IMG/VR virus record: IMGVR_UViG_3300006641_000192
Location: 1 to 23,106 of that record
Strand: one strand, 5' to 3'
Length of the DNA stretch: 23,106 bases
Source of the DNA: a virus
Shown: one piece after another, positions 1,057 through 16,202 of the stretch
Layout of the letters: every line of letters begins with the position of its first letter
Numbering within the stretch: the first letter of the stretch is position 1
Translations under genes and position numbers: made by a program
The notes under the pieces: model-generated
The model's input: only the letters and a program-made list of their open reading frames with translations
Databases searched by the model: none
Told to the model about the DNA's origin: nothing

Positions 1057-1389
1057 ATGTTAGAACCAGTATTTCCAGACTCCATAGACTTTAAATGCGA
1101 AGATCTATATTTACTTACAGTTGGAACAGAAGCAGGTAAAGAAATTTGGCATACCTGCCATGAAATTGCACACATGCTTATTAAGAAAAATATTGCTTAT
1201 GGCAATTCAGCCCTTGACCCTGTTCGCATATTTTCAAAGGCGGGGCCAAGAGAGCAGCTTCATGTCCGTATTGATGATAAATTAAATAGACTTATGAAGG
1301 GTACAGATTATCCAGGAGATAATGATATTGATGACCTAATTGGCTATTTAGTTCTATTAAAGATTGCCAAAAGCCAACAATCCAGTTGA
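1057..1389 (+). CDS. DUF1599-like (nucleotide-modification-associated type) protein
   Basis: This is a 110-residue, mostly helical protein. Residues about 44-60 (KNIAYGNSALDPVRIFS) and 69-100 (HVRIDDKLNRL ... DNDIDDLIGYLVLL) match the pattern K-x3-YGNS ... R-x-DDK-x2-R ... D-x2-DLIGYL. That pattern is known from small phage proteins of the DUF1599 type, which are related to MazG-like helical nucleotide hydrolases. The acidic residues in the last two helices could bind a metal. A ribosome-binding site (GGAGAG) precedes the ATG. The family assignment comes from motif memory only. A role in nucleotide metabolism is inference. Confidence 0.55.
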   Translation: MLEPVFPDSIDFKCEDLYLLTVGTEAGKEIWHTCHEIAHMLIKKNIAYGNSALDPVRIFSKAGPREQLHVRIDDKLNRLMKGTDYPGDNDIDDLIGYLVLLKIAKSQQSS

Positions 1390-1414
1390 TTTTTTAGTCG
1401 ACTAGGAATATAAT
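1386..1414 (+). promoter_or_regulatory. Sigma70-like promoter for the terminase genes, with a palindrome in the spacer
   Basis: The -35 is TTGATT (1386-1391), the spacer is 17 bp and the -10 is TATAAT (1409-1414). The predicted +1 (about 1421) falls 2 nt before the ATG at 1423, so the mRNA would be leaderless or nearly so. The spacer contains a perfect 10-bp palindrome, TAGTCGACTA (1395-1404), a plausible operator. The -35 overlaps the stop codon of the upstream gene. Confidence 0.7.
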
Positions 1415-1422
1415 GTATATAT

Positions 1423-1962
1423 ATGGACATTGAATTAGCAGATCATTATGATCGAATGAACAAGGTAGTCTCAGAACTACTAAAGGGTAATAACCCTACT
1501 CAGATTGCCACCCTAACGGGTTTTAAACGGGCAGAGGTCTTAGAGTATATAGAAGAGTGGAAGCAGGTCGTTAGAAGCGATTCTGGGGCTCGTGAGAGGG
1601 CAAAGGAAGCCATCTCTGGGGCAGACCAACACTATGCCATGCTTATTAAAGAGGCTTGGAAGACCGTAGAGGACGCAGACACTCAGGGTCAATTAAACGT
1701 AAAAGCAACGGCATTAAAGCTAATTGCTGATATTGAAGGCAAGCGTATAGGTATGCTTCAAGAGGTTGGCCTATTAGATAACGCAGAGCTTGCTACACAA
1801 TTAGCAGAAACAGAACGCAAGCAAGATGTTCTTGTAAAGATTTTAAAAGAAGTTACAGCAACATGCCCTAAGTGTAAGCTAGAGGTGGCAAAGAGACTGT
1901 CCCAAATTACTGGAGTAGTTGAACCAGTTGTAATAGATGCAGAGCAGGTAAGTGGATCTTAA
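1423..1962 (+). CDS. Terminase small subunit
   Basis: This 179-residue helical protein lies directly upstream of, and overlaps, the terminase large subunit. The N-terminal 50 residues (VSELLKGNNPTQIATLTG, then KRAEVLEYIEEWKQ) read as a helix-turn-helix, as expected for the DNA-recognition domain that binds the packaging site. Long helices follow, likely for oligomerisation. A CPKC pair sits near residue 150. No Shine-Dalgarno sequence is visible: the ATG lies 8 nt behind a perfect TATAAT, so translation probably starts on a leaderless message. The function rests on gene position plus the HTH, since small terminases diverge strongly. Confidence 0.75.
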   Translation: MDIELADHYDRMNKVVSELLKGNNPTQIATLTGFKRAEVLEYIEEWKQVVRSDSGARERAKEAISGADQHYAMLIKEAWKTVEDADTQGQLNVKATALKLIADIEGKRIGMLQEVGLLDNAELATQLAETERKQDVLVKILKEVTATCPKCKLEVAKRLSQITGVVEPVVIDAEQVSGS

Positions 1963-3739
1963 TTTCAATGATCTGATAGATATACTCGATGGCGAAGAAT
2001 TTGATGAGAGGCCAGTCGACCTACAGACATTTGTAACAAGTCCAGATTATCTTGGGCTTCCGCCACTTTCAGATAATCAATATACATTAATTGAAAAGTC
2101 TTCTCAGATTTATAAAGAGTCCACGCTAATTAAATTGTTTGGGGAAGAAGAAGGTAAGCGTAGATTTAAGCAAACATGCAATGAGGTTATTGCACAATTG
2201 GGTAAGGGTTCTGGAAAAGATTATTGCTCAACCATATCTGTATCGTATATAGTATATTTACTATTATGCCTCAAAGATCCAGCAACCTATTATGGTAAGC
2301 CACCTGGAGACACTATCGATATTATTAATATTGCTGTTAACGCACAACAGGCAAACAATGTTTTCTTCAAAGGTTTTAAAACACGCATAGACAGATCACC
2401 TTGGTTTATTGGAAAGTATGATCCCAAAGCTTCTGAAGTTAGATTTAATAAAAATGTAAACGTATATTCTGGACACTCTGAGCGTGAAGCATTCGAAGGT
2501 TATAACGTAATCGCTGTAATCCTTGACGAAATTTCTGGCTTTGCCACAGAGAACACAACTGGTCATGACCAAGCAAAGACTGCTGATGCTATTTATGATA
2601 TGTATCGTGGATCTGTTGTATCTCGTTTCCCAGACTACGGTAAGGTTATTCTGCTTTCATTCCCCCGCTTTAAGAATGACCCTATTCAAAAATTCTATGA
2701 TTCAGTGGTGGCGGAAAAAGAAACTATTATTAGAAGCAAGACAATGAAGATGGACGATAACCTTCCAGACGGTACAGAGGGAAATGAGATAACAGTTGAA
2801 TGGGAAGAAGACCACATCGTATCTTATACTATCCCTAAAGTCTATGCCTTGAAGCGTCCCACATGGGAGATTAACCCAACTAAAACAATTGAGAATTTTA
2901 AGGTAGAGTTCTATAAGAATATGCCAGATGCTCTTAGTCGTTTTGCTTGCATGCCACCAGAAGCAGTAGATGCATTCTTTAAATCTCGTGAAAAGATTGA
3001 AAAGGCATTTAGTAATATGGCTCTAGCAATTGACTCATTCGGCAGACTTGAGCCATGGTTTGCGCCAGATCCAGATAAAGAATATTTCTTGCATGTTGAC
3101 TTAGCGCAAAAACATGACCATTGTGCCGTTGCTATGTCTCACGTAAACAAATGGGTAAATGTAAAAGTAACAGACACATATTCGCAGGCTGCTCCAATTG
3201 TAGAAGTTGATGCGGTTAGATATTGGACTCCAACATCAGATAAGTCTGTAGACTTTACTGAAGTTAAAGATTATATACTAAGCCTAAGATCAACTGGATT
3301 TAATATACGTGTCTGCACATTTGACAGATGGAATTCTCATGACATGATGCAACAATTAAAGGCATACGGAATTAATACAGAAACATTGTCTGTAGCCAAA
3401 AAGCATTATGACGATATGGCTATGGTAGTTCTAGAAGAAAGATTAACTGGACCACACCTACCGCTTTTGATAGATGAATTGTTACAGTTAAAAATTATGA
3501 GAGATAGAGTTGACCACCCAAGAAAAGGATCTAAGGACTTAGCAGACGCAGTCTGTGGATCTATTTATAATGCTATTAGTAGAACTAAGTCTAGTAGTAT
3601 AGGGGAAATAGAGGTCCATACATACGATAGTTTTAAGAGAGATACTGAGCAGGAGTATGCAAGAAGCATGAATGTTATAGAAGCCCCTAGAATGCCTAAA
3701 GACTTGGCGGATGTAATAGAAGGAATGGAAATAGTATGA
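1952..3739 (+). CDS. terL: Terminase large subunit (packaging ATPase and nuclease)
   Basis: This 595-residue protein has the usual length for the family. The Walker A-like motif GKGSGKD is at residues 84-90, and Walker B, VIAVILDE, is at about 187-194. The RNase H-like nuclease follows, with YFLHVDLAQKHDH (Asp383), VCTFDRW (Asp458) and KDLADAV (Asp529/Asp532) as the acidic metal ligands. It powers DNA translocation into the prohead and cuts the concatemer. The start is GTG at 1952, 11 nt inside the small subunit gene; an ATG is not available nearby. The stop overlaps the next gene by 4 nt. The portal gene usually found downstream is absent. Confidence 0.95.
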   Translation: MDLNFNDLIDILDGEEFDERPVDLQTFVTSPDYLGLPPLSDNQYTLIEKSSQIYKESTLIKLFGEEEGKRRFKQTCNEVIAQLGKGSGKDYCSTISVSYIVYLLLCLKDPATYYGKPPGDTIDIINIAVNAQQANNVFFKGFKTRIDRSPWFIGKYDPKASEVRFNKNVNVYSGHSEREAFEGYNVIAVILDEISGFATENTTGHDQAKTADAIYDMYRGSVVSRFPDYGKVILLSFPRFKNDPIQKFYDSVVAEKETIIRSKTMKMDDNLPDGTEGNEITVEWEEDHIVSYTIPKVYALKRPTWEINPTKTIENFKVEFYKNMPDALSRFACMPPEAVDAFFKSREKIEKAFSNMALAIDSFGRLEPWFAPDPDKEYFLHVDLAQKHDHCAVAMSHVNKWVNVKVTDTYSQAAPIVEVDAVRYWTPTSDKSVDFTEVKDYILSLRSTGFNIRVCTFDRWNSHDMMQQLKAYGINTETLSVAKKHYDDMAMVVLEERLTGPHLPLLIDELLQLKIMRDRVDHPRKGSKDLADAVCGSIYNAISRTKSSSIGEIEVHTYDSFKRDTEQEYARSMNVIEAPRMPKDLADVIEGMEIV

Positions 3740-3987
3740 GCGTATATCAAGATAAAGCTAAAGAATGTAAATGTTGTGGTAAGCATGTCCCATTGCCAAC
3801 AACCCTAAAGGAGTATAATGGTACTATGCTCTGCCCTACCACGTTTGCTAACGTGGTGGAATACAAAAGAATATGGAAGGCTTCTGGCACTAGACCGCCT
3901 GGAAGTATTAGAAAACATTTCTCTGATTATGTACAGCAATTAGTTGAAGTGACTATTGACAAGAATGATGACGGCACAATACAATAG
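3736..3987 (+). CDS. Small zinc-binding protein of unknown function
   Basis: This is an 83-residue protein. A CKCCGKH motif near residues 12-18 and a further Cys in MLCPTTFANVVEY suggest a zinc knuckle with an HNH-like or recognition-helix arrangement, but no nuclease signature is complete. It starts in an ATGA overlap with the terminase large subunit and ends 8 nt before the tRNA. It is thus part of the packaging operon. I do not recognise a family; HNH-related packaging factor is one possibility, unproven. Confidence 0.7.
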   Translation: MSVYQDKAKECKCCGKHVPLPTTLKEYNGTMLCPTTFANVVEYKRIWKASGTRPPGSIRKHFSDYVQQLVEVTIDKNDDGTIQ

Positions 3988-3994
3988 GCTATTC

Positions 3995-4068
3995 GCAACA
4001 GTAGCCAAGTTGGTTAAGGCCCCGAACTCATAATTCGGTTATCGTCAGTTCAAGTCTGACCTGTTGCA
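3995..4068 (+). tRNA. tRNA with CAT anticodon (elongator Met or Ile2)
   Basis: A complete cloverleaf of 74 nt can be drawn. The acceptor GCAACAG pairs with CTGTTGC. The D arm is GCC ... GGC around AGTTGGTTAA, and the anticodon arm is CCGAA-CTCATAA-TTCGG. The variable loop is TTATC, the T arm is GTCAG-TTCAAGT-CTGAC, and the discriminator is A. The anticodon is CAT. The G1-C72 pair and an anticodon stem without three G-C pairs argue against initiator tRNA. It could be elongator Met or, with lysidine modification, Ile2. CCA is not encoded. It sits inside an operon, so it is probably processed from a longer transcript. Confidence 0.93.
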
Positions 4069-4079
4069 CAGGAGGCAAA

Positions 4080-4400
4080 ATGGAAAACCATGGAGATTCA
4101 GAAGACGAAAAAATGGCATACTATTTAGAGATAGGTGCTATAGAGTTAGCTGGAGTAGATGAAAGCGGAGAGATGATCTTTGCTATAAATGAAATTGCTG
4201 AAGAAATTGCCCCAGAATTATGGGAAGCGCATACACAATATGTCGATAAGACTTTAGTAGAGTTATATGAGGCTGGATATATTAAGGTAGACTATAATGA
4301 AAATTTAGAAGCAATGATTAGTCTAAGCCAAGAAGGTTACGAAATTGCAAAAGAAAAAGGCATACTGCCAATAGATATGCCAGAAGCACCAAATAATTAG
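4080..4400 (+). CDS. Acidic helical protein, winged-helix-like, unknown function
   Basis: This is a 106-residue acidic protein. A strong AGGAGG sits 5 nt before the ATG, right behind the tRNA 3' end. The central segment (LWEAHTQYVDKTLVELYEAGYIKVDYNENLEAMISLSQEGYEIAKE) has the helix, helix, beta-wing rhythm of winged-helix proteins with a C-terminal helix. The acidic charge and the lack of a clear basic recognition helix make DNA binding uncertain. No family is recognised. Confidence 0.75.
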   Translation: MENHGDSEDEKMAYYLEIGAIELAGVDESGEMIFAINEIAEEIAPELWEAHTQYVDKTLVELYEAGYIKVDYNENLEAMISLSQEGYEIAKEKGILPIDMPEAPNN

Positions 4401-4408
4401 GAGGAAAT

Positions 4409-4585
4409 ATGCCATACGATGTAAAACAAGGAGCAGCAGGCTGTAAAGGTTGGGCTGTAGTAAATGATAAAGGCGAACTTAAAGGTTGCCACCCGTCTAA
4501 ATCTAGAGCTCAGGCACACCAACGAGCCCTATATGCAGCAACTGCAAATGAAGAAAAAATGAAAGATAAAAAGCGAATCTTGTAA
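4409..4585 (+). CDS. Small basic protein with a GCHPSK motif
   Basis: This is a 58-residue ORF with a good ribosome-binding site (AGGAGG) 4 nt before the ATG. The core CKGWAVVNDKGELKGCHPSK followed by an Ala/Gln-rich helix (AQAHQRALYAAT) resembles a small module seen in phage head-maturation proteases and as free-standing phage proteins (pattern WAVV ... GCH ... A-x2-Q-x-ALYA). Here it stands alone. Its role is unknown; an association with capsid maturation is inference from that resemblance. Confidence 0.75.
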   Translation: MPYDVKQGAAGCKGWAVVNDKGELKGCHPSKSRAQAHQRALYAATANEEKMKDKKRIL

Positions 4586-4639
4586 TTCAAAATACAGTTT
4601 GCTATAATATATGTGGGTCGCCGTAAGGGGCCCACATAT
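4580..4639 (+). promoter_or_regulatory. Promoter of the Hsp20 gene with a 9-bp inverted repeat over the start site
   Basis: The -35 is TTGTAA (4580-4585), the spacer is 17 bp and the -10 is TATAAT (4603-4608). A perfect inverted repeat, ATATGTGGG (4609-4617) and CCCACATAT (4631-4639), covers the predicted +1 near 4615. It could be an operator for a repressor or, in part, a 5'-terminal hairpin of the mRNA. The leader then runs to AAGGAGG before the ATG at 4668. It is not a classical ROSE or CIRCE element. Confidence 0.7.
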
Positions 4640-4667
4640 TAATTTATTCGCTTAAAGGAGGAATAAA

Positions 4668-5090
4668 ATGGTAACAACATTTGCCATGGATCTCTTTAGG
4701 GATCCTTTTTTTATCGGCTTCAATCGTGAAGTAGAAAGACTCAACAATATCCATCGAGAGGCAGTCTCTCAATCATTCCCGCCATACAATATCGTCAAGG
4801 TTGACGAAGATACATACCGTGTATCTCTTGCTGTGGCTGGCTTTGACAAAAAGGATGTTGAGGTAACTGTAGATAATGGAACTCTTATCGTTAAGGGTGA
4901 AGTTAAAGCAGAAGAAGAGTCTGGAGAAATTCTTCACAAGGGTATCGCCGCCCGTAAATTCACACGCACATTTGCGCTTGGTGAATATATGGAAGTGGTA
5001 GGAGCCGAATTCAAGAATGGTATGCTGCATATTGATGTAGATCGTATTGTTCCTGAAGAGAAAAAGCCTAAAACAATCAAAATTAAATAA
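4668..5090 (+). CDS. Small heat-shock protein, Hsp20 family
   Basis: This 140-residue protein is close in length to IbpA. Residues about 38-130 form the alpha-crystallin domain: YNIVKVDEDTYRVSLAVAGF, then KKDVEVTVDNGTLIVKGE, ARKFTRTFALGEYMEV and GAEFKNGMLHIDV. The C-terminal tail PEEKKPKTIKIK contains the I-x-I-type anchor used in oligomer assembly. It is an ATP-independent holdase in the cytoplasm. It has its own promoter and a strong Shine-Dalgarno sequence. Hsp20 genes are known from several aquatic phages and are thought to help virion protein folding; that role here is inference. Confidence 0.93.
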   Translation: MVTTFAMDLFRDPFFIGFNREVERLNNIHREAVSQSFPPYNIVKVDEDTYRVSLAVAGFDKKDVEVTVDNGTLIVKGEVKAEEESGEILHKGIAARKFTRTFALGEYMEVVGAEFKNGMLHIDVDRIVPEEKKPKTIKIK

Positions 5091-5092
5091 GG

Positions 5093-5098
5093 TATAAT
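5093..5098 (+). promoter_or_regulatory. -10 element of the FmdB-like gene
   Basis: TATAAT lies 3 nt after the Hsp20 stop codon. The -35 region (AAAACA at 5070-5075, 17-bp spacer) is poor. The predicted +1 near 5105 coincides with the first hairpin of the leader described at 5104-5196. Confidence 0.5.
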
Positions 5099-5103
5099 AT
5101 AAG

Positions 5104-5196
5104 TCTGCACCCCGTCACTGGGGAGTCGCAGATGCGGGCATAGTTGCCTAGGATCCACCTGAGCATGTGGCTAAACTGCTCCTTAAAATTTAGGAG
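5104..5196 (+). ncRNA. Structured leader RNA with a hairpin masking the ribosome-binding site
   Basis: About 95 nt of non-coding leader can fold into three helices. Helix 1 pairs TCTGC (5104-5108) with GCAGA (5128-5132), with CCCC (5110-5113) and GGGG (5120-5123) inside. Helix 2 pairs AGTT (5142-5145) with AACT (5174-5177), with CCAC (5155-5158) and GTGG (5167-5170) inside. Helix 3 pairs CTCCT (5179-5183) with AGGAG (5192-5196), the Shine-Dalgarno sequence of the next gene. The anti-SD strand can also pair with GGAG in helix 1 (5122-5125), so a two-state switch is possible. No known riboswitch class is recognised. Confidence 0.45.
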
Positions 5197-5200
5197 AAGA

Positions 5201-5383
5201 ATGCCAAATTATGATTACAAGTGTGTGATTTGTAATTACACAAAAGAAATACCAAAACCTTTTTCGCAAGCAGACATGGTTGAGCTTTGTGAAAAGTGCG
5301 GTGCTGCAATGGTTAAGCAGTTCGGTACATTTGGTATTCAGTTTAAAGGTAACGGCTTCTACAAAACAGATAACGCTAAATAG
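5201..5383 (+). CDS. FmdB-type zinc ribbon protein
   Basis: This is a 60-residue protein. MPNYDYKCVICNY, followed by a second knuckle CEKCGAAMVKQF, gives the C-x2-C ... C-x2-C zinc ribbon of the FmdB/CxxC_CXXC_SSSS family. The motif then runs into FGIQFKGNGFYKTD, the usual C-terminal signature. These proteins are thought to be regulatory, but their function is not settled. ATG 5201 is chosen because AGGAG lies 4 nt upstream; a longer frame from 5144 would place coding sequence inside the structured leader. Confidence 0.88.
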   Translation: MPNYDYKCVICNYTKEIPKPFSQADMVELCEKCGAAMVKQFGTFGIQFKGNGFYKTDNAK

Positions 5384-5391
5384 TCAGATGA

Positions 5392-5420
5392 TATAATTAA
5401 CTTGTTACAAGATTTGTAAC
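5392..5420 (+). promoter_or_regulatory. -10 element and 7-bp inverted repeat before the PA14 gene
   Basis: TATAAT (5392-5397) is followed by GTTACAA-GAT-TTGTAAC (5404-5420), a perfect inverted repeat that begins at the predicted +1. It can form a hairpin at the very 5' end of the mRNA or act as an operator. AGGAG at 5422-5426 is the ribosome-binding site for the TTG start at 5433. The -35 region is weak. Confidence 0.55.
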
Positions 5421-5432
5421 TAGGAGTTATAG

Positions 5433-7665: not shown

Positions 7666-7671
7666 TATAAT
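7666..7671 (+). promoter_or_regulatory. -10 element of the lipoprotein gene (leaderless start)
   Basis: TATAAT is followed by exactly 6 nt and then ATG 7678, so the predicted +1 is the start codon itself. The -35 is weak (TTTAAG, 7642-7647). Confidence 0.55.
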
Positions 7672-7677: not shown

Positions 7678-7899
7678 ATGAGAAAAATAATTGCCTCATT
7701 TTCAAGCGTAGTGCTGGCCTTGACCCTAACTTCTTGTGGGTATCAGGGCAGTTTCCGCTATCCTTGTCAGGATCAAGCAAATTGGGATAAGGCAGAATGT
7801 AATCCTCCAATCTGTGAATCAACAGGAACGTGCAGCAAAGATATTGTTGGCGAAAAAATATGGACAGATTATCAGAATAGTAAGGTAAAAAATGGCTAA
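7678..7899 (+). CDS. Small lipoprotein
   Basis: This is a 73-residue protein. MRKIIASFSSVVLALTLTSC is a lipoprotein signal peptide with the lipobox LTSC, so Cys20 would be lipidated and the protein anchored on the outer face of the membrane. The mature part has five further cysteines (YPC, AEC, PPIC, GTC) that could form disulfides outside the cell. ATG 7678 is chosen because it begins the signal peptide and follows TATAAT by 6 nt; longer frames run into the previous gene. It lies in the lysis-type cassette. A role in superinfection exclusion or lysis is possible but unproven. Confidence 0.85.
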   Translation: MRKIIASFSSVVLALTLTSCGYQGSFRYPCQDQANWDKAECNPPICESTGTCSKDIVGEKIWTDYQNSKVKNG

Positions 7900-8935: not shown

Positions 8936-9079
8936 ATGAATACCTATAGGATTAAACTTGAGGTTGATGCAGAAGTCCAAGCATTCAGCGAGGAAGATGC
9001 AGCAGATTATATTAATGATATATTCGGAGTTGACGATGAAGTTAAAAACGTCAAAGTCGTTAGCGTGAAGGAGAAATAA
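8936..9079 (+). CDS. Short acidic protein of unknown function
   Basis: This is a 47-residue protein with a beta-alpha-beta look: MNTYRIKLEVDAEVQAF, then a helix SEEDAADYINDIFG, then VKNVKVVSVKEK. Similar short proteins in phages often read T/Y-x-I/V-x-V-E-V-D-AxSxEDA. The ATG 1 nt after the endolysin stop is chosen, since the longer frame runs through the endolysin gene. It shares its stop with the next start (TAATG). Confidence 0.75.
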   Translation: MNTYRIKLEVDAEVQAFSEEDAADYINDIFGVDDEVKNVKVVSVKEK

Positions 9080-9943: not shown

Positions 9944-9961
9944 TTAATTTATTAGGACGGC

Positions 9962-10186
9962 ATGCTAAAGTTAAATGAAATTGGCGTAAATCTCTTAATC
10001 AAGAGAGCCAAGGATGTTACTCCATATTGGGACAATTATGACCTAGTAATATGGAAAAAGGATCCATCAGGGTTCACAAGCATAAAAGGACTATTTAGAA
10101 ATACTTGGGGCATTGCAGAAAGAATTTCTGTAAATAACGAAGGCGTATGGGAACTTCCAAAAAAATATGTCAAGTATTTTAAGTAA
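9962..10186 (+). CDS. Small protein of unknown function upstream of WhiB
   Basis: This is a 74-residue protein rich in Trp and aromatic residues (TPYWDNYDLVIWKKD, GLFRNTWGIAERI, GVWELPKKYVKYFK), probably a small beta-sheet fold. It is the first gene behind the strong promoter at 9892-9943, with AGGA 6 nt before the ATG. It overlaps the WhiB gene by 20 nt. No family is recognised. Confidence 0.75.
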   Translation: MLKLNEIGVNLLIKRAKDVTPYWDNYDLVIWKKDPSGFTSIKGLFRNTWGIAERISVNNEGVWELPKKYVKYFK

Positions 10187-10478
10187 TCTAGGAATAGATG
10201 AAGAAGATTTTGATTGGTACTCGCTTGCGATATGTCGTGGAATGGACACAAATTTATTTTATGACCAATACGAAGCCGATCCAAACATTGCAAGAAATAT
10301 AGATGAGATGTGCTTATCTTGCCCAGTTGTTAGTATTTGCTATAAAGCTGGTCAGGATATGAATGAATATGGAGTATGGGGAGGTGTCTTTATGACTTCT
10401 GGATCTATTGATAAGTCTAAGAATTTGCATAAGACTGCCGAAACCTGGAAGAGATTGAAGAAGAAAAATGTTCATTGA
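10167..10478 (+). CDS. WhiB-like iron-sulfur transcription factor
   Basis: This is a 103-residue protein. The four cluster cysteines are in place: Cys23 (AICRGMD), then Cys49, Cys52 and Cys58 in MCLSCPVVSIC, the C ... C-x2-C-x5-C pattern. GVWGGVF (about 69-75) is the family's G(V/I)WGG turn. A basic C-terminus (KRLKKK) matches the DNA-contacting tail. WhiB proteins bind a 4Fe-4S cluster and the primary sigma factor region 4 and are essentially restricted to actinobacteria and their phages. Here it could redirect host RNA polymerase. The start overlaps the upstream gene; no clear Shine-Dalgarno sequence. Confidence 0.93.
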   Translation: MSSILSNLGIDEEDFDWYSLAICRGMDTNLFYDQYEADPNIARNIDEMCLSCPVVSICYKAGQDMNEYGVWGGVFMTSGSIDKSKNLHKTAETWKRLKKKNVH

Positions 10479-10794: not shown

Positions 10795-10975
10795 TGTCAT
10801 ATATATCGTTTGGCTTCATGACGAACAACGTTATGGAATGCTGGAAAAACTCGGAGCCTTTGCCTCTATGGTAAAATATAACATAGACGGAGAAGAGTAC
10901 GAAGATTTAGTAGAGAATGAGAATTTCACCATAGTGGATGAAATTGTTCATCAACATGTTGAGGAATCAAATTAA
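10778..10975 (+). CDS. Small acidic protein of unknown function
   Basis: This is a 65-residue protein starting at GTG, with GAGGGAG about 7 nt upstream and a 17-nt overlap with the previous gene. It reads YSDVIYIVWLHDEQRYGM and then NFTIVDEIVHQHVEESN, an acidic beta/alpha protein. Its stop overlaps the ATG of the next gene by one base. Not recognised. Confidence 0.7.
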   Translation: MREYSDVIYIVWLHDEQRYGMLEKLGAFASMVKYNIDGEEYEDLVENENFTIVDEIVHQHVEESN

Positions 10976-11211
10976 TGGAAAAAATACTTTGCTATAGTTG
11001 CAATAAGACTAAGGCTAAATTAGATGTAAAGAAGTCTTCATTGCTTCCTATAAATCTGCTAATGTGCGAGACATGCATCTCGTCTAAATTTGAGCCACGC
11101 TGGGTAATTATTTTGGCGGGTAGATCAAATGGACCAGACCATGTTAAGGAATTTATTATCCGCCGTCGCTATGTTGGCAATGAAGTATCAGCGTCAGAGT
11201 TGCTAGTTTAG
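10975..11211 (+). CDS. Small zinc-knuckle protein of unknown function
   Basis: This is a 78-residue protein. LCYSCNKTKAKL and LMCETCISSKFEPRWVIILAGR give two C-x2-C pairs, likely one zinc site, followed by a short basic tail with RRRY. I recall similar short proteins in actinobacterial phages with the same PINLL-x-CE-x-C ... EPRWV-x-ILAGRS wording, but no function is known to me. It closes the WhiB transcription unit. Confidence 0.8.
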   Translation: MEKILCYSCNKTKAKLDVKKSSLLPINLLMCETCISSKFEPRWVIILAGRSNGPDHVKEFIIRRRYVGNEVSASELLV

Positions 11212-11225
11212 ACTTAATTTTACGG

Positions 11226-11231
11226 TATAAT
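11226..11231 (+). promoter_or_regulatory. -10 element of the 11241 gene (near-leaderless)
   Basis: TATAAT lies 9 nt before ATG 11241, giving a predicted leader of about 3 nt. The -35 is poor (TTGCTA with a 20-bp spacer). Confidence 0.5.
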
Positions 11232-11240
11232 TAATCTATT

Positions 11241-11549
11241 ATGGATTATACCTCAATCGTAATTGCCCTATTTGCTGCCACATTATCTGGATTTGCAACT
11301 GCCTTGGTCGCTGCCGTAAGAGACAGTAAAAAGGAAAAAGTACGTAGGGCTGAGCGGGAACAAGATCATCTTAAATTAGAGATAAAAGACCTCAAAATTG
11401 AGTTATATAAATTAGAAAAAGAACTGATCGACTGGAAAGATAAATATTATTCTTCTATCCAAGAATTAATTCAGGTAAAGGCTGAGCTTGAAAATGCCCT
11501 AGTTCAATTAAATATAATTGAATTTAGGGATATGGACTCGGAATATTAA
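11241..11549 (+). CDS. Membrane-anchored coiled-coil protein
   Basis: This is a 102-residue protein. SIVIALFAATLSGFATALVAAV (about residues 5-26) is a single transmembrane helix. It is followed by a heptad-rich coiled coil (KKEKVRRAEREQDHLKLEIKDLKIELYKLEKEL and onward) that should face the cytoplasm. The short N-terminus and positive-inside residues fit N-out topology. Function unknown; an anchor or Rz-like part is possible, but no lysis gene is adjacent. Confidence 0.75.
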   Translation: MDYTSIVIALFAATLSGFATALVAAVRDSKKEKVRRAEREQDHLKLEIKDLKIELYKLEKELIDWKDKYYSSIQELIQVKAELENALVQLNIIEFRDMDSEY

Positions 11550-11561
11550 AAATAGTATACT
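11533..11561 (+). promoter_or_regulatory. Promoter of the HslV-like gene (leaderless)
   Basis: The -35 is TGGACT (11533-11538), the spacer is 17 bp and the -10 is TATACT (11556-11561). ATG 11568 follows 6 nt after the -10, which places the +1 at the A of the start codon. No Shine-Dalgarno sequence is available. Confidence 0.6.
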
Positions 11562-11567
11562 AGGGGT

Positions 11568-12134
11568 ATGACCTGTATAGTCGCCCTAATTCATGAAAAC
11601 AAGGTTCTCCTTGGCGGAGATGCTGCTGCATCCGACGATAAAAGTGGTTTAATATTTCAAAGAACTGATCCAAAAGTTTTTAAAGTAGGACAATTTGGTA
11701 TTGGGTTTGTTGATAGTTTTAGAATGGGTCAGATACTTCAATACAATTGGACACCACCTGTTTATAAGCCAACTGCAGGGTATAGAAATCTAGATAAGTT
11801 TATGAGAACTAGATTTGTTGAATCAATTAAAGATGCTTTTAAGGAACAAGGTTATGGAAACTTCAGTTCAGGAACAGAGGACGGAGATCTTGGTGGCATC
11901 TTTTTAATAGCAGTTCAAGGTGCTGGAAGAATTTTTGCGATGGACTCTGATTTTCATATTGGAGAAGCAGATGTTCAATATATGGCAGAAGGAGCAGGAC
12001 AAGAACTTGCCCTTGGCTCTCTATTCTCTACAGCTCAGGTTAAGACTCCACGTAAACGTGTTAGAATGGCTTTAGAGGCGGCGGCTAAGTTTAATATGAG
12101 TGTCAGACCACCCTTTACAATAATTGAAGTCTAG
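11568..12134 (+). CDS. HslV/proteasome-beta-like Ntn-hydrolase
   Basis: This is a 188-residue protein. It begins MTCIVAL, so removal of Met exposes Thr1 as the N-terminal nucleophile. GGD then places Asp at mature position 17, exactly as in proteasome beta/HslV. DPKVFKV supplies the Lys33-like residue. GIGFVDSFRMGQIL and AEGAGQELALGSLF match the later strands and the G-x-G ... ALG turn of HslV. No propeptide is present, because the Met is directly followed by Thr. No HslU or other unfoldase is encoded in the window, so it may use a host ATPase or act alone. Proteolysis itself is inference. Confidence 0.85.
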   Translation: MTCIVALIHENKVLLGGDAAASDDKSGLIFQRTDPKVFKVGQFGIGFVDSFRMGQILQYNWTPPVYKPTAGYRNLDKFMRTRFVESIKDAFKEQGYGNFSSGTEDGDLGGIFLIAVQGAGRIFAMDSDFHIGEADVQYMAEGAGQELALGSLFSTAQVKTPRKRVRMALEAAAKFNMSVRPPFTIIEV

Positions 12135-12142
12135 GATATAAT
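12114..12142 (+). promoter_or_regulatory. Promoter of the 12149 gene (leaderless)
   Basis: The -35 is TTTACA (12114-12119), inside the end of the HslV-like gene. The spacer is 17 bp and the -10 is TATAAT (12137-12142). ATG 12149 follows 6 nt later, at the predicted +1. Confidence 0.7.
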
Positions 12143-12148
12143 AGATTT

Positions 12149-12505
12149 ATGAAATGGCTAAATCGATTAGCCGCCCTACTGTTCGGCTTGTTATCAGTCG
12201 GGGTAGCGAGAGACTTCTTTAGCAAGTACGAGTTGCTTGTATTAAATAAAGAAAGTATTGAGCCTTATGAAGAGGAAGAGCAAATGGGAGATATCATTAA
12301 CCTGAGACCTCAAAACTATGATCATGCAATGGATGTTCGTGGTACTCCTACTCATGTATGTCCATGTGGATGTAACATATGGAACATAAAAGCAATTTTT
12401 GATGATTTTGAAATAGCAACTTACTTCCTAGATATGGAATGTGCTAATTGTGGTAGCCTTGCAACTGCTCCCACTCCGATAGATAAAGACAGAACGGATA
12501 TATGA
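12149..12505 (+). CDS. Protein with N-terminal hydrophobic helix and C-terminal zinc ribbon
   Basis: This is a 118-residue protein. The first 18 residues (MKWLNRLAALLFGLLSVG) are a membrane helix or uncleaved signal. The acidic middle (EPYEEEEQ) leads to a zinc ribbon with HVCPCGCNIWNIK and MECANCGS. An internal ATG at residue 46 (MGDIINLRPQNY) could give a soluble 73-residue form. No good Shine-Dalgarno sequence precedes the first start, in line with leaderless translation. Family not recognised. Confidence 0.75.
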   Translation: MKWLNRLAALLFGLLSVGVARDFFSKYELLVLNKESIEPYEEEEQMGDIINLRPQNYDHAMDVRGTPTHVCPCGCNIWNIKAIFDDFEIATYFLDMECANCGSLATAPTPIDKDRTDI

Positions 12506-12666
12506 GAAAGTCAGAAAGAATCAGGGTGCTGGAACTTGAAGTATTACGCCAGCAGTATGAATTAGAATATTTAAAGATAACTTTGCAGGCTATGATGGAA
12601 TCAAAAGGATTAAATATTCCTGAAATGGATGCTGGCAAATGGTACAACAGGAAACCTAAAGAATAG
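12502..12666 (+). CDS. Short coiled-coil protein
   Basis: This is a 54-residue ORF that starts in an ATGA overlap with the previous gene. The first 35 residues (RKSERIRVLELEVLRQQYELEYLKITLQAMME) form a clear heptad coiled coil, followed by GLNIPEMDAGKWYNRKPKE. It is probably a small oligomeric adaptor; function unknown. Confidence 0.75.
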   Translation: MRKSERIRVLELEVLRQQYELEYLKITLQAMMESKGLNIPEMDAGKWYNRKPKE

Positions 12667-12668
12667 TA

Positions 12669-12697
12669 TTGACAGGTTCTACGCTATTTAGTAGAAT
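12669..12697 (+). promoter_or_regulatory. Promoter of the subtilase gene (leaderless) with inverted repeat
   Basis: The -35 is TTGACA (12669-12674), the spacer is 17 bp and the -10 is TAGAAT (12692-12697). ATG 12705 follows 7 nt after the -10. TTCTAC (12677-12682) and GTAGAA (12691-12696) form an inverted repeat across the spacer. The core TATTTAGTAG-R-ATAG is shared with the promoter at 13851-13879. Confidence 0.75.
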
Positions 12698-12704
12698 AGT
12701 CTAC

Positions 12705-13643
12705 ATGAATAAAAAAATCCTAACGGCTCTAATTGCCGTATTAATTGCTGTACCAACGAGTTCATTTGCAAATGTAAAGAACTCTACGCTGAAAAATAGC
12801 ACATCAAATGTGCCTACATTAGCTATCCTAGATACTGCGATAGACAACTCAATTCCTGACATTAAATCAAAATTAGTTTACGAGGTGTGTGTTTTAGAAT
12901 GGACAACATGCCCTAATGGAAGATCATTTATGGAAGGTCCAAATTCTGCTACATTGCCACTAAATGCCATTACCAAAAATGGTTTTGATCATGGCACACA
13001 GATGGCCTCTGCAGCAATTCAGACTAACCCAAATATGAATATTGTATTTGTACGTATTGTTGGTCAAAATATTAACTACGATAGACAAATTAACACAGAT
13101 GCATCAGTATGGATGGCCTTGGATTGGGTAATTCAAAATAGAGATAAGTTTAATATTCAAGCAGTTTCGATGTCACAAGGACACCATAATTTGTTATCTT
13201 CAACAGACTACTGCCCAAAAAGCACCTTAGTTGAAAATAAGATAAAGGTTCTTGTTGATTCTGGAGTACCAGTATTTTTTGCTTCAGGCAATACCTATGA
13301 CTATAAAAAGATTGACTGGCCTTCATGTATCCCTAACTCAATTTCAGTAGGCGCTGCTACAAGAAATGGCATAGAGGTATATAGTAACTATGATGCTAAC
13401 TTAATTGATTTTACTGCAAACTCACGAGCACAAGTATTTGTTCCAGGCGGGGCAAGAGTGAATGCTACTGGCACATCTATTTCAACTCAAGTAGCAGCAG
13501 CATCATGGCTAGCGGTTAAGTCTGCTAAACCAACATTATCATATACACAACTATATGATTTGATTAAAGCTAAGTCTAGACCAGTTAAAGGTAAGCAAGG
13601 AAACGGCATACTAATTGATCTTGCAGGAGCATTAAATGGCTAA
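12705..13643 (+). CDS. Secreted subtilisin-like serine protease (S8 family)
   Basis: This is a 312-residue protein. Residues 1-22 are a signal peptide (MNKKILTALIAVLIAVPTSSFA). The S8 catalytic residues are all present: Asp43 in LAILDTAID, His96 in GFDHGTQMAS and Ser258 in NATGTSISTQVAA. The oxyanion Asn196 is in VFFASGN. The catalytic domain starts almost at once, so there is no I9-type propeptide. Internal cysteine pairs (VCVLEWTTC; DYC ... SC) suggest disulfides. The start at 12705 replaces a longer TTG frame that would begin inside the -35 box. Export from the infected cell would let it cut surface or neighbouring proteins; the target is unknown. Confidence 0.92.
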   Translation: MNKKILTALIAVLIAVPTSSFANVKNSTLKNSTSNVPTLAILDTAIDNSIPDIKSKLVYEVCVLEWTTCPNGRSFMEGPNSATLPLNAITKNGFDHGTQMASAAIQTNPNMNIVFVRIVGQNINYDRQINTDASVWMALDWVIQNRDKFNIQAVSMSQGHHNLLSSTDYCPKSTLVENKIKVLVDSGVPVFFASGNTYDYKKIDWPSCIPNSISVGAATRNGIEVYSNYDANLIDFTANSRAQVFVPGGARVNATGTSISTQVAAASWLAVKSAKPTLSYTQLYDLIKAKSRPVKGKQGNGILIDLAGALNG

Positions 13644-13848
13644 TCAAGTAACTGTACTGGAAGCAATTATCGGAGACGTTGCAATTGCGTTATATCAGAA
13701 ATGGTATAACGCAATGCCAATCGAAGAAAGAAGCGAATTGGCAGAAGAAGCATTAAAAAAGAATGCACAAGAAAGCACATTATTTGTAATTCAAATGTTT
13801 ATGGATAAATTTAATGAGGCTGCCGAAGAATTAAAAAATCAAGACTAG
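13636..13848 (+). CDS. Small helical protein of unknown function
   Basis: This is a 70-residue, all-helical acidic protein (VTVLEAIIGDVAIALYQKWYNAM, then EERSELAEEALKKN and FVIQMFMDKFNEAAEELKNQ). It overlaps the subtilase gene by 8 nt and is therefore translationally coupled to it. Coupling suggests a cytoplasmic partner, but no chaperone or inhibitor motif is visible. Confidence 0.75.
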   Translation: MANQVTVLEAIIGDVAIALYQKWYNAMPIEERSELAEEALKKNAQESTLFVIQMFMDKFNEAAEELKNQD

Positions 13849-13850
13849 TA

Positions 13851-13879
13851 TTGACTAGCCTTATATTATTTAGTAGGAT
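13851..13879 (+). promoter_or_regulatory. Promoter of the 13886 gene (leaderless)
   Basis: The -35 is TTGACT (13851-13856), the spacer is 17 bp and the -10 is TAGGAT (13874-13879). ATG 13886 follows 6 nt later. The segment around the -10 (ATTTAGTAGGATAG) nearly repeats the subtilase promoter. Confidence 0.7.
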
Positions 13880-13885
13880 AGGACT

Positions 13886-14359
13886 ATGCAAACATTTCTA
13901 CCACACGCAAATTTTGATAAGACTGCAAAACACCTAGATCGTAAACGTCTTATCAAGCAAAGCGTTGAGAACCTACAGGTACTCAAGTCCTTGGCGGGTT
14001 ACTATGATGAATCAGGTGCTTGGATAAATCATCCAGCAGTTAAGATGTGGCGTGGACATGAAGACTGGCTATTTCTTTATAATGAATCTATTATTAAGGA
14101 AATTATTCTTCGTGGCTATAAAAATAGCACACACGCAAAGTTTGACGAGATTTATGAAGAGAATTTCATGGGTCTAGAGTCAGACAGACCTTGGTGGCTT
14201 GGAGATGAAAAGCTTCATTACTCACACAAGGGCAGGTTATTTGAGAAAGATCCTGAAAAATATTATTTCTATAGCGAATATTCTGACTATCGTGAGTTGG
14301 GCTATACTTGTTGCGATAAATGCCAATATTTTTGGCCTACTCATGTGGAGGCAATATGA
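13886..14359 (+). CDS. Pyrimidine-dimer DNA glycosylase-like protein (MSMEG_6728 type)
   Basis: This is a 157-residue protein. The N-terminus MQTFLPHANFDKTAKHLDRKR followed by LIKQSVENLQVLKSL matches the MQTFLP ... LD-x-x-RL-x-KQ-x-VE pattern of the actinobacterial family annotated as pyrimidine dimer DNA glycosylase. NHPAVKMWRGHEDWLFLYN and an ILRGYKN helix also match, and SHKGRLFEKDPEKYYF fits its C-terminal signature. The extension CCDKCQYFWPTH looks like a zinc knuckle. The enzyme would act on UV-damaged DNA, but similarity to T4 endonuclease V is remote, so activity is inference. Transcription starts at its own leaderless promoter. Confidence 0.75.
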   Translation: MQTFLPHANFDKTAKHLDRKRLIKQSVENLQVLKSLAGYYDESGAWINHPAVKMWRGHEDWLFLYNESIIKEIILRGYKNSTHAKFDEIYEENFMGLESDRPWWLGDEKLHYSHKGRLFEKDPEKYYFYSEYSDYRELGYTCCDKCQYFWPTHVEAI

Positions 14360-14658
14360 TAATCACAGACGATACATTTGGTCAGGCTATATCAGATAAT
14401 AGTCTTATCTTGGTAGATTTCTGGGCAGACTGGTGTGGTCCTTGTAAAAAGATGAATCCAATCTTAGAAGAACTCTCAAGTGAGACTGGACTGTTAATAG
14501 GAAAGTTAAATGTTGATGAAAATCCAGGAAAATCTCAGGAATACTCTGTACAATCAATACCGACTATGGTATTATTTAAGGATGGAAATCCAGTCCACAC
14601 AGTCGTAGGTGCAATGCCTAAGCACAGACTGTTAAAGGAACTAGCACAATGGATTTAA
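14356..14658 (+). CDS. Thioredoxin
   Basis: This is a 100-residue protein. The active site FWADWCGPCKKMNP has Cys27 and Cys30, the cis-Pro is in QSIPTMVLF (Pro69), and GAMPKHRLLKEL is the final helix. The fold is complete and standard in length. It reduces disulfides in the cytoplasm, for example in phage ribonucleotide reductase or capsid proteins. ATG 14356 is chosen because GGAGG lies 5 nt upstream and it overlaps the previous stop (ATGA). Confidence 0.95.
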   Translation: MIITDDTFGQAISDNSLILVDFWADWCGPCKKMNPILEELSSETGLLIGKLNVDENPGKSQEYSVQSIPTMVLFKDGNPVHTVVGAMPKHRLLKELAQWI

Positions 14659-14882
14659 CATTTGACGAATGGATTTCATACGGGCTTGAAAAAGGTTGGT
14701 GCGGACCTCCTGTATGTTACACACACGACGGACTACCAATGTCTGAACATGAAATGCAAGGATTTGATAATGGCGAAGATCCATGTATGCATGTTGTAAG
14801 AATGTACGAAGACATTGATATGAAAAATGAAATTGAGGATAATCACTCACCGTCACAATGGCGGAACTCGTACACAAACTAG
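14649..14882 (+). CDS. Small protein with WCGPPVCYTHDG motif, unknown function
   Basis: This is a 77-residue acidic protein that overlaps thioredoxin by 10 nt. The core GWCGPPVCYTHDGLPMSEHEM and GEDPCMHVVRMYED hold three cysteines and several histidines and could bind a metal. Similar short proteins with WC-GPPVCYTHDG ... DPC-x-H are, to my recollection, widespread in actinobacterial phages without known function. The WCGP coincidence with thioredoxin is superficial; the CxxC spacing is not kept. Confidence 0.8.
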   Translation: MDLTFDEWISYGLEKGWCGPPVCYTHDGLPMSEHEMQGFDNGEDPCMHVVRMYEDIDMKNEIEDNHSPSQWRNSYTN

Positions 14883-14930
14883 AATTCCATTTTCACAAGA
14901 ATATGGATAATATAAGGAGAAATAAATTAA

Positions 14931-16004
14931 ATGAAATCATTTAAGAAAATCGCCCTAGCCGTGGTTGCAGCCATGACTATGAGCACCCTTGTTGCAACAT
15001 CTGCAAGTGCTGCACCCATGGTCATTACTTCTGTAAAGAAGAATACAGGAACAATTGCTTCCCCGACATGGACAACACAAACAGCAGGTACAGCAGCGAC
15101 TGCACCAATTACAATTCCAGTTCCTACAGATAATTCTGTAGATTCTGTCGATGTAGTTGAATTTGTAGTAACAGTTGACACAGGAACAGCAGTTTCTGTT
15201 AGCGCAACTAACGCAACTGTAGTTCCTGCATTTGCAACATCTACAGCACCAGTAACATCATCTTCAGGATCATCTACATGGTCATTGAATGTTGGTACAG
15301 GTACAACAGCAACGTTTTATGTATATACTAAAACGACAGCAATTAGCTCTGTAGCAATTTCAAATCAGGGCACAACAGCAACATACTTCATTCAGGGTAC
15401 ATCTACACTGATTGATAAGATCGCTCTTTCTGGCGTTGATTCAGCACCAGCAGGAACATCAGTAACAGTAACAGCAACTGCACAAGACGTATTTGGAAAT
15501 AAAATTTCTGGAAAGACTCTAAATGCAATTGCTAATGGAGCAACACTTGATACCGTAACAGTAACAACTGGTGCAACATTGACTAATTTTGGCACAGCAG
15601 ACGTTAAGTTTGTTGCTCCAGCAACTGGTCCAGTTACAATCGTTTTCTATGCTGCATCAGCAGACATGGCAGCAGCAGTTACTGGATTTAGCACACCTTC
15701 TGCATCATCTGTAAAGGTAATTGCAGTTCGTGATTTGAGTGGTGAAGTTGCTGCTCTTACAGCACAACTTGCAGCAGCAAATACTGCTCTTGCAGCAGAA
15801 CGTGCAGGCCGTGCAGCAGATAAGACTGCAGCAGACAAGGCTCTTGCAGATGCTAAGGTTGCCTCTGATAAGGCCCTAGCAGATGCTGCAGCAGCAAAGG
15901 CTGCTTCAGATAAGTCTATTGCGGATCTAAAGGCTGCCTTCAATAAGTTGGCTCGTCAGTGGAATGCAAAGAATCCAAAAGCTAAGGTTACTCTAGTAAA
16001 GTAA
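14931..16004 (+). CDS. Secreted Ala/Thr-rich surface protein with C-terminal coiled coil
   Basis: This is a 357-residue protein. Residues 1-28 are a clear signal peptide (MKSFKKIALAVVAAMTMSTL, then VATSASAA). Residues about 30-265 are Thr/Ser/Val-rich beta sequence, including an Ig-like strand pattern near VDSAPAGTSVTVTATAQDVFG (about 168-188). Residues 270-335 are a heptad coiled coil built of A-x2-A/D-K repeats, and the tail KLARQWNAKNPKAKVTLVK is basic. AAGGAG lies 12 nt before the ATG. It looks like a bacterial S-layer or wall-associated protein rather than a virion part. It may be a copied host surface protein or an exclusion factor; both are inference. Confidence 0.85.
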   Translation: MKSFKKIALAVVAAMTMSTLVATSASAAPMVITSVKKNTGTIASPTWTTQTAGTAATAPITIPVPTDNSVDSVDVVEFVVTVDTGTAVSVSATNATVVPAFATSTAPVTSSSGSSTWSLNVGTGTTATFYVYTKTTAISSVAISNQGTTATYFIQGTSTLIDKIALSGVDSAPAGTSVTVTATAQDVFGNKISGKTLNAIANGATLDTVTVTTGATLTNFGTADVKFVAPATGPVTIVFYAASADMAAAVTGFSTPSASSVKVIAVRDLSGEVAALTAQLAAANTALAAERAGRAADKTAADKALADAKVASDKALADAAAAKAASDKSIADLKAAFNKLARQWNAKNPKAKVTLVK

Positions 16005-16013
16005 TCTAAATTT

Positions 16014-16055
16014 AATAAGGGGGCAGGGCTCAAGGGTCTTGCCTCCTTATTTTAT
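16014..16055 (+). terminator. Strong intrinsic terminator after the surface protein gene
   Basis: AATAAGG ... CCTTATT closes a long stem that also pairs GGCA with TGCC and contains G-U wobbles, with a loop around GGCTCAAGG. TTATTTTAT follows directly. It lies 10 nt after the stop codon. Its descending arm also contains the -35 of the next gene. Confidence 0.85.
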
Positions 16056-16067
16056 AAATGATAGAAT
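16039..16067 (+). promoter_or_regulatory. Promoter embedded in the terminator
   Basis: The -35 is TTGCCT (16039-16044), on the terminator's descending arm. The spacer is 17 bp and the -10 is TAGAAT (16062-16067). GTG 16074 follows 6 nt later, giving a leaderless GTG-started message. Confidence 0.5.
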
Positions 16068-16073
16068 AAGATT

Positions 16074-16202
16074 GTGGAAGAATACTTACAAGAAAAAGTC
16101 AGAAAAGACATAATAAGAGAAATAGGTAATCTTGAACTCCCAAAAGAATGGGAGCCACAAATGGTGATCGATTATATAATCAGAAAGATAGACAAAAAAT
16201 AA
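16074..16202 (+). CDS. Very short helical protein, GTG start
   Basis: This is a 42-residue ORF (EEYLQEKVRKDIIREIGNLE, then LPKEWEPQMVIDYIIRKIDKK), amphipathic and charged. Support comes from the -10 element exactly 6 nt before GTG and a TAATG overlap with the next gene. Function unknown. Confidence 0.6.
   Translation: MEEYLQEKVRKDIIREIGNLELPKEWEPQMVIDYIIRKIDKK

What the first reader, a model, noticed from the sequence alone, without database searches (positions are those of the whole stretch)
1386..16076. A family of leaderless promoters with a fixed -10 to start-codon distance
At 1423, 7678, 11241, 11568, 12149, 12705, 13886 and 16074 a -10 hexamer (TATAAT, TATACT, TAGAAT or TAGGAT) is followed by 6 to 9 nt and then the start codon, with 6 nt in five of the eight. 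Several have TTGACA-, TTTACA- or TTGATT-type -35 boxes at a 17-bp spacing. None has room for a Shine-Dalgarno sequence. Other genes in the same window use strong AGGAG. So two initiation modes coexist, and the leaderless set includes the terminase, HslV-like, subtilase and glycosylase-like genes. Actinobacterial hosts translate leaderless mRNAs well, so the split may set timing or level.
Basis: partly seen in the sequence, partly recalled or inferred. Interest (0 to 1): 0.7.

Follow-up and report, generated by a model that had tools for sequence, protein, structure and literature searches.

The report
Conserved leaderless promoters in actinophages
Several genes in this phage have promoters placed so close to the start codon that their messenger RNAs should begin at, or within three bases of, the start codon; related phages keep the same spacing, and a gene tends to use this mode when it stands first in its transcription unit, which is how many bacteria of the likely host group also start genes.

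Summary
In detail: all eight sites have a -10 hexamer 6-9 nt before the start codon (6 nt in five) and no room for a Shine-Dalgarno (SD) site. TANNNT at gap 6/7: 57 of 57 orthologs at 7678, 45 of 45 at 12149, 63 of 63 at 12705, 9 of 9 at 16074, 83 of 89 at 11568, 42 of 55 at 13886; gap 8 in 48 of 51 at 1423; gap 9 in 13 of 21 at 11241 (each count includes the window's own contig). In 1.37 Mb of non-redundant relatives TATAAT-to-ATG distances peak at exactly 6. Six small actinobacterial genomes peak there too. Start codons are ATG/GTG. Mode follows operon position: thioredoxin orthologs are leaderless in 9 of 9 cases at least 31 nt behind the upstream gene and 0 of 54 abutting ones. "Timing or level" is not needed. 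In four cultured Streptomyces phages 10 of 12 TATAAT-N6-ATG sites are annotated gene starts. A new member of a known kind; transcription starts remain unmapped.

The parts
1386..1414 (+). Promoter of 1423: TTGATT 1386-1391, palindrome TAGTCGACTA 1395-1404, -10 TATAAT 1409-1414
   Evidence: gap 8 kept in 48 of 51 orthologs; TAGTC(G/A)ACTA in most of the rows shown
1423..1962 (+). Gene before the large terminase (phrog_9507; homologs called terminase small subunit in some phages); near-leaderless, predicted leader 2 nt
7666..7671 (+). -10 TATAAT, 6 nt before ATG 7678
   Evidence: gap 6 in 57 of 57 orthologs
7678..7899 (+). 73-aa protein, leaderless start
11226..11231 (+). -10 TATAAT, 9 nt before ATG 11241
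   Evidence: gap 9 in 13 of 21, gap 8 in 3, gap 10 in 2
11241..11549 (+). 102-aa protein (phrog_10127), near-leaderless, predicted leader 3 nt
11533..11562 (+). Promoter of 11568: TGGACT 11533-11538, palindrome TAGTATACTA 11553-11562 covering -10 TATACT 11556-11561
   Evidence: TANNNT at gap 6 or 7 in 83 of 89 orthologs
11568..12134 (+). HslV-like peptidase (phrog_1040), leaderless start
12114..12142 (+). Promoter of 12149: TTTACA 12114-12119 inside the end of the HslV-like gene, TATAAT 12137-12142
   Evidence: TANNNT gap 6/7 in 45 of 45
12149..12505 (+). 118-aa protein, leaderless start
12669..12697 (+). Promoter of 12705: TTGACA 12669-12674, TTTAG 12687-12691, -10 TAGAAT 12692-12697
   Evidence: TANNNT gap 6/7 in 63 of 63
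12705..13643 (+). Subtilase (PF00082), leaderless start
13841..13879 (+). Promoter of 13886: inverted repeat 13841-13862, TTGACT 13851-13856, TTTAG, -10 TAGGAT 13874-13879
13886..14359 (+). Pyrimidine dimer DNA glycosylase (PF03013), leaderless start
16014..16067 (+). Terminator-like hairpin (about 16014-16052) whose 3' arm holds TTGCCT 16039-16044 (17 nt from -10), then TAGAAT 16062-16067
   Evidence: fold z below -2 in 9 of 9 orthologs; -35 by my own count
16074..16202 (+). 42-aa protein, leaderless GTG start
   Evidence: gap 6 in 9 of 9, start 7 GTG and 2 ATG
14356..14658 (+). Thioredoxin (PF00085): SD-led here behind 13886; scored leaderless in 9 of 64 orthologs
8936..9079 (+). 47-aa protein: directly behind the upstream stop here; scored leaderless in 11 of 64 orthologs
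21615..21914 (-). Possible further leaderless gene: TATAATGGGCTC-ATG, start 21902
   Evidence: gap 6 in only 2 of 6 orthologs

Best explanation
The eight sites are real sigma70/sigmaA-type promoters. Their -10 element puts the transcription start (about 7 nt after the hexamer) on the first base of the start codon (7678, 11568, 12149, 13886, 16074 and, within one base, 12705) or 2-3 nt before it (1423, 11241). The mRNAs are thus leaderless or nearly so, and are presumably translated by ribosomes that start on a 5'-terminal AUG/GUG, as bacteria of this phylum do. Which mode a gene uses is set mainly by its place: the first gene of a transcription unit may be leaderless, and genes behind it use an SD site or coupling to the upstream stop codon. 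A few units have longer SD leaders instead. Shown here: geometry, conservation, codon restriction, position rule. Inferred: the transcription starts themselves, the polymerase, the translation mechanism.
For: Gene-by-gene conservation of gap and rarity of SD. Single-base peak at gap 6 before ATG for TATAAT, TAGAAT and TATACT in 1.37 Mb of non-redundant relatives (162, 69, 49; highest other gap 67, 42, 32); no such peak before TTG, nor for three scrambled hexamers; TTGACA-to-ATG peaks at 29 nt = 17+6+6 (64, next 39). At starts of ORFs of 40 aa or more, TATAAT gap 6 = 218 against 2-31 outside gaps 6-10; no peak in 50 kb of T4. In ten related records of about 110 kb TATAAT-N6-ATG occurs 104 times, TATAAT-N8-ATG 45, the reversed N6 pattern 30, both strands summed. 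Of 328 starts scored leaderless 313 are ATG, 13 GTG, 2 TTG (both TTG in family 18113, with SD), against 46 TTG among 1364 others. Position switch: 14356 leaderless 9 of 9 at 31 nt or more from the upstream gene (one with no upstream ORF found), 0 of 54 at 1 nt or less; 8936 leaderless 7 of 7 at 12 nt or more, 40 of 42 non-leaderless within 10 nt. Six small Actinomycetes-class genomes peak at gap 6 (29, 45, 14, 18, 18, 13), gap 7 being raised in most. In four cultured Streptomyces phages 10 of 12 TATAAT-N6-ATG sites are annotated CDS starts. The same signal is taken as leaderless in bacteria in PMC3160421 (passages).
Against: No transcription-start or protein data. In the window alone the degenerate motif is hardly enriched (18 against 12.6). 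TATACT-N6-CTG is the highest of its row too (31, next 27), and TAAAAT before ATG has no clean peak (73 at 6, 76 at 5, 75 at 17). Homologs of 1423 in four Streptomyces phages are not leaderless. 13 of 55 orthologs of 13886 and 6 of 89 of 11568 lack the signal at gap 6/7. Position is not fully decisive: leaderless cases within 10 nt of the upstream gene are 7 of 52 at 7678, 4 of 41 at 13886, 1 of 80 at 11568, 1 of 44 at 12149, 1 of 61 at 12705, 2 of 2 at 12502 and 1 of 1 at -21902. T4 as a whole has 8 TATAAT-N6-ATG on one strand against 1 for the reversed pattern. The host is not identified; consensus TATAAT-N6-ATG is rare in actinobacterial chromosomes (123 of 394 genomes have any match). Orthologs are related to each other, so the counts are not independent.
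Confidence: 0.9

Rival explanations
1. The hexamers are chance AT-rich words in a 39% GC genome, noticed because they precede start codons.
Against: Base-exact peak at gap 6 before ATG, absent before TTG and for scrambled hexamers; gap kept in up to 57 of 57 orthologs while the surrounding sequence changes.
Confidence: 0.01
2. They are promoters, but the true start is another: transcription starts upstream (leadered, SD-free) or the real start codon lies further downstream.
For: No transcription start is mapped; gaps 8 and 9 at 1423 and 11241 are conserved and imply a short leader.
Against: Orthologs counted were required to align from residue 1; a distant ortholog of 13886 with SD uses the same Met (L051); a fixed gap and ATG/GTG preference are unexplained by a leader.
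Confidence: 0.06
3. The split is a temporal or level programme: leaderless promoters form phage regulons under a phage factor (for example the WhiB protein), and leaderless translation matters for regulation.
For: Promoter classes are gene-specific: TTTAGTANNNT before subtilase, glycosylase, HslV-like and a GroES-like start (339 of 614 redundant occurrences precede an ATG or GTG ORF by 5-9 nt) but 0 of 13 (5-8 nt) in 800 kb of host-class DNA; palindromes at 1423 and 11568; WhiB gene.
Against: Choice of leaderless or SD is largely predicted by operon position; leaderless genes are of mixed function; no expression data.
Confidence: 0.2
4. The upstream AT element is a translation enhancer on a longer mRNA, not a promoter.
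For: No RNA data exclude it.
Against: The element is a -10 hexamer with, in several families, a -35 at 17 bp; 16074 sits right after a strong terminator-like hairpin.
Confidence: 0.02

Closest known systems
Leaderless ('TA-led') genes of Actinobacteria and other bacteria (Zheng et al. 2011, PMC3160421; passages read)
   Same: TANNNT about 12 bp before the start, no SD, only operon-proximal genes; TAtaaT form in groups of medium GC
   Different: Described in bacterial genomes; the phages here add gene-specific extended elements
Mycobacterial leaderless mRNAs (Shell et al. 2015, PMC4633059; passages read)
   Same: Promoter abuts the ORF; only ATG and GTG work at the 5' end; same restriction in the phage set
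   Different: Shown by RNA-seq, ribosome profiling and reporters; here only inferred
Predicted leaderless promoters of Cluster O mycobacteriophages (PMC4351075, passages read) and P90 of phage Adephagia (PMC11373665, one passage)
   Different: One to three such promoters named per genome in the passages; here a set compared over hundreds of loci, with the position rule
Lambda cI leaderless mRNA (mentioned in PMC9031893, passage)
   Same: Leaderless phage mRNA
   Different: A single gene, in a phage of E. coli (host recalled)

Membership tests
Leaderless (TA-led) bacterial genes | TANNNT core with first T about 12 bp before the start codon | tested here: met
   Gap 6 peak; 1423 and 11241 sit at 8 and 9 nt, near-leaderless
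Leaderless (TA-led) bacterial genes | No Shine-Dalgarno site | tested here: met
   SD-like words among starts scored leaderless: 0 of 63 (12705), 0 of 9 (16074), 0 of 82 (11568), 3 of 57 (7678), 9 of 45 (12149), 5 of 42 (13886); in the window's own 12149 and 13886 the word is an AGGA that overlaps the -10 stretch
Leaderless (TA-led) bacterial genes | Only operon-proximal genes | tested here: met
   Position switch at 14356 and 8936; exceptions listed in the Against line
Leaderless mRNAs of Actinobacteria | Start codon AUG or GUG only | tested here: met
   313 ATG, 13 GTG, 2 TTG with SD; no TTG peak; CTG: one row (TATACT) highest at gap 6 by a small margin
Leaderless mRNAs of Actinobacteria | Transcription start at the start codon | not testable with these tools
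   No RNA data held for these phages
Leaderless mRNAs of Actinobacteria | Host of the phylum uses the mode | tested here: inconclusive
   Six unnamed small genomes of the class show it, but the host itself is unknown
Sigma70/sigmaA promoters | TTGACA-like -35 at 16-18 bp | tested here: inconclusive
   5-of-6 matches are common at 12705, 13886 and 12149; 15 pairings among 54 sequences at 11568; 1 of 33 at 7678, 1 of 21 at 1423, 0 of 17 at 11241, 0 of 6 at 16074 (non-redundant)

The most novel reading that the evidence does not exclude
These phages carry a phage-specific promoter class, (TTGAC-N17/18-)TTTAG-TANNNT-N6/7-RTG, that drives a small regulon of leaderless genes (HslV-like protease, subtilase, pyrimidine-dimer glycosylase, GroES-like) under a phage factor such as the WhiB protein; and some leaderless promoters are fused to the upstream terminator, whose hairpin contains the -35 box, so that one element of about 50 bp ends one transcription unit and starts the next without any untranslated RNA.
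Probability: 0.25. Interest if true: 0.6.

Novelty: new member of a known kind. Interest (0 to 1): 0.45.

Why it matters
It indicates by comparison that a lineage of actinophages known here only from metagenome contigs uses leaderless initiation for the first genes of many transcription units; gene callers that rely on SD sites may mis-set such starts (inference). It gives a simple rule (position largely decides the mode) and points to cultured Streptomyces phages with the same signal at annotated starts, where leaderless phage translation could be tested directly.

Tried and rejected
Extra leaderless start at 16546 (TATAAT-N6-ATG, 12 codons): rejected; the promoter is conserved but only 7 of 24 orthologs have an RTG 6 nt after a -10 there; it looks like a leader with a hairpin before the SD of 16594.

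Phage-borne initiator tRNA as a booster of leaderless translation (initiator tRNA is said to favour it, PMC9031893, passage): rejected. The tRNA-Met(CAT) at 3995-4069 lacks the GGG/CCC anticodon stem, and none of 57 CAT tRNAs in the loci (redundant) has it (initiator features recalled). The position-72 column is not reliable and was not used.

Hairpin at the -35 as a general rule: not general. 13886: 9 of 28 non-redundant sequences have 7 or more of 9 pairs (arm shuffles mean 3.5, maximum 8 in 1000) and the right register scores best of nine, but the mean paired fraction, 0.540, was exceeded by at least one shuffle (mean 0.467, maximum 0.548). 12705: 0 of 44, no signal, and not the best register. 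16074: strong hairpin in 9 of 9.

Identifying the host through thioredoxin in genome contigs: none of the 80 listed loci has a title naming Nanopelagicales; host left open. The six genomes are unnamed; I picked them from the 394 for small size and one large contig, out of those printed with a TATAAT-N6-ATG match, so they are not a random draw.

Literature: searches led to leaderless predictions for single actinophage promoters; in those listings I saw no genome-wide or comparative study of leaderless genes in actinophages. They cover open-licence PMC papers only. PMC10202952 (isolated Nanopelagicales phages): part 1 of 2 of the text and one 'find'; it does not hold the word leaderless.
Full report
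What the window is. It is a 23,106-base virus record. It encodes a WhiB transcription factor (10167-10475, PF02467), and its large terminase is 61-64% identical, in the 20 listed rows, to Streptomyces phages; the four records I opened are placed in Stanwilliamsviridae. An actinobacterial host is therefore likely; its identity is open, and so is the habitat. A 45 kb contig, IMGVR_UViG_3300025872_000096, carries four of the window's proteins at 100% identity at matching coordinates.

Observation. All eight sites are as described.

Comparison. I searched them with 59 candidate gene starts of the window; two were mis-set (16545, 21624) and gave no orthologs. I kept hits aligned from residue 1 with 60 nt of upstream sequence and removed identical contexts: 1692 ortholog starts in 57 families, one row in each key family being the window's own contig. 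TANNNT at gap 6 or 7: 7678 57 of 57, 12149 45 of 45, 12705 63 of 63, 16074 9 of 9, 11568 83 of 89, 13886 42 of 55. The 1423 family has a -10 at gap 8 in 48 of 51, the 11241 family at gap 9 in 13 of 21. Most other genes have none there. Partial exceptions: 14356 (10 of 64), 8936 (11 of 64), -21902 (2 of 6), 18113 (2 of 5), 12502 (2 of 66), 9962 (2 of 82), 10167 (1 of 86) and 4080 (1 of 2). In the 43 closest glycosylase loci with readable upstream sequence (a 44th was cut off) every one has TTGAC and a TANNNT 6-8 nt before the ATG, read by eye.

Unbiased counts. In 1.37 Mb left after masking repeated 25-mers, TATAAT-Ng-ATG has one sharp peak, 162 at g=6, against 21-67 at the other 30 gaps; TAGAAT gives 69 and TATACT 49 at g=6. 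There is no such peak before TTG or for TAATAT, AATTAT and ATATTA; before CTG the only hint is TATACT, 31 at g=6 with 27 next. TAAAAT before ATG shows no clean peak (73 at g=6, 76 at g=5, 75 at g=17). Restricted to ORFs of 40 aa or more, TATAAT-ATG gives 218 at g=6 and 34, 53, 68, 28 at g=7-10, against 2-31 elsewhere; this count removes only identical contexts. 50 kb of T4 shows no peak at 6. In ten related records of 108,849-119,837 bases TATAAT-N6-ATG occurs 104 times, the N8 pattern 45, the reversed N6 pattern 30.

Codon and position rules. Of 328 starts scored leaderless, 313 are ATG, 13 GTG and 2 TTG, both of these in family 18113 and with an SD; of 1364 others 46 are TTG. Mycobacterial work reports that only ATG and GTG initiate leaderless translation (PMC4633059, passages). 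The thioredoxin gene 14356 is leaderless in 9 of 9 orthologs at least 31 nt behind the upstream gene (one of them with no upstream ORF found) and in 0 of 54 at 1 nt or less; 8936 behaves alike (this call dropped starts within 700 nt of a contig end). Among the 25 families printed, leaderless ones stand a median of 14-67 nt behind the upstream stop, while most SD or coupled families abut or overlap it; the exceptions among leaderless cases are listed in the Against line. 4668, 9962, 14931 and 16594 form a third group with a median of 48-83 nt and an SD in most or all orthologs; 5201 is mixed. That only the proximal gene can be leaderless is stated for prokaryotes in PMC3160421 (passage). So the two modes need no timing hypothesis.

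Hosts and cultured relatives. In 800 kb from six small genomes of the Actinomycetes class, TANNNT before early RTG codons of long ORFs peaks at gap 6 (choice of genomes explained under Tried and rejected). Their hexamers are mostly not TATAAT and rarely have a TTGA -35 (2 of 147), so the phages use promoters nearer consensus than the chromosomes. In four cultured Streptomyces phages, 10 of 12 TATAAT-N6-ATG sites fall exactly on annotated CDS starts, including two head-to-tail connector genes; the misses are MK359351 28980 and NC_048720 79853. Homologs of 1423 there are not leaderless: they lie within a few bases of, or overlap, the gene before them. T4 has 8 such sites on one strand; none of the three in its first 50 kb is an annotated start.

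Promoter classes. The subtilase and glycosylase families share TTGAC and TTTAG-TANNNT; the HslV-like family has GAATTT-rich spacers and the palindrome TAGTATACTA over its -10, preceded by TTTAG in many relatives; 1423 has the palindrome TAGTC(G/A)ACTA 4, 6 or 8 nt before TATAAT in the rows I compared; 7678 and 11241 mostly lack a TTGACA-like -35. TTTAGTANNNT precedes RTG by 5-9 nt in 339 of 614 redundant occurrences and by 5-8 nt in 0 of 13 in the host-class DNA. At 16074 the -35 (TTGCCT, by my count) lies in the 3' arm of a terminator-like hairpin present in 9 of 9 orthologs; at 13886 a hairpin centred on the -35, with different stem sequences, occurs in 9 of 28. These are leads to a phage regulon and to terminator-promoter fusion, not proofs.

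Verdict. The finding is real and well supported, but of a known kind. Cluster O mycobacteriophages already had predicted leaderless promoters (PMC4351075, passages). The decisive missing evidence is mapped 5' ends.

Noticed in passing
16534-16593: Leader of 16594: TATAAT, then a hairpin AGATGG..TTCTAGA..CCATCT whose stem changes in matching fashion in relatives (AAGCGG/CCGCTT, GAAGG/CCTTC, GCAGG/CCTGC), then CCTATAGGAG. Read by eye in the 24 orthologs; looks like a conserved structured 5' UTR.
   Followed up: partly
1395-1404: Palindrome TAGTCGACTA just before the -10 of the small-terminase-like gene, kept in most relatives shown as TAGTC(G/A)ACTA at 4, 6 or 8 nt from TATAAT: a possible operator or activator site.
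   Followed up: partly
11553-11562: Perfect palindrome TAGTATACTA covering the -10 of the HslV-like gene, with a conserved GAATTT-rich spacer upstream.
   Followed up: partly
3995-4069: tRNA-Met(CAT), elongator-like, directly before gene 4080; CAT is the commonest anticodon among tRNAs of the related loci (57, redundant). In L164 gene 4080 instead has TATAAT-N6-ATG.
   Followed up: partly
L039: A GroES-like start (MIKPLGNILLVK, resemblance recalled) behind the TTTAGTANNNT promoter class in a related phage.
   Followed up: no
4668-5090, 18963-19439, 12705-13643: Hsp20, S-adenosylmethionine decarboxylase and subtilase genes in a phage fragment.
   Followed up: no
19610-20110: AT-rich stretch without a long ORF where the main coding strand and GC skew switch; candidate for convergent termination or an origin.
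   Followed up: no
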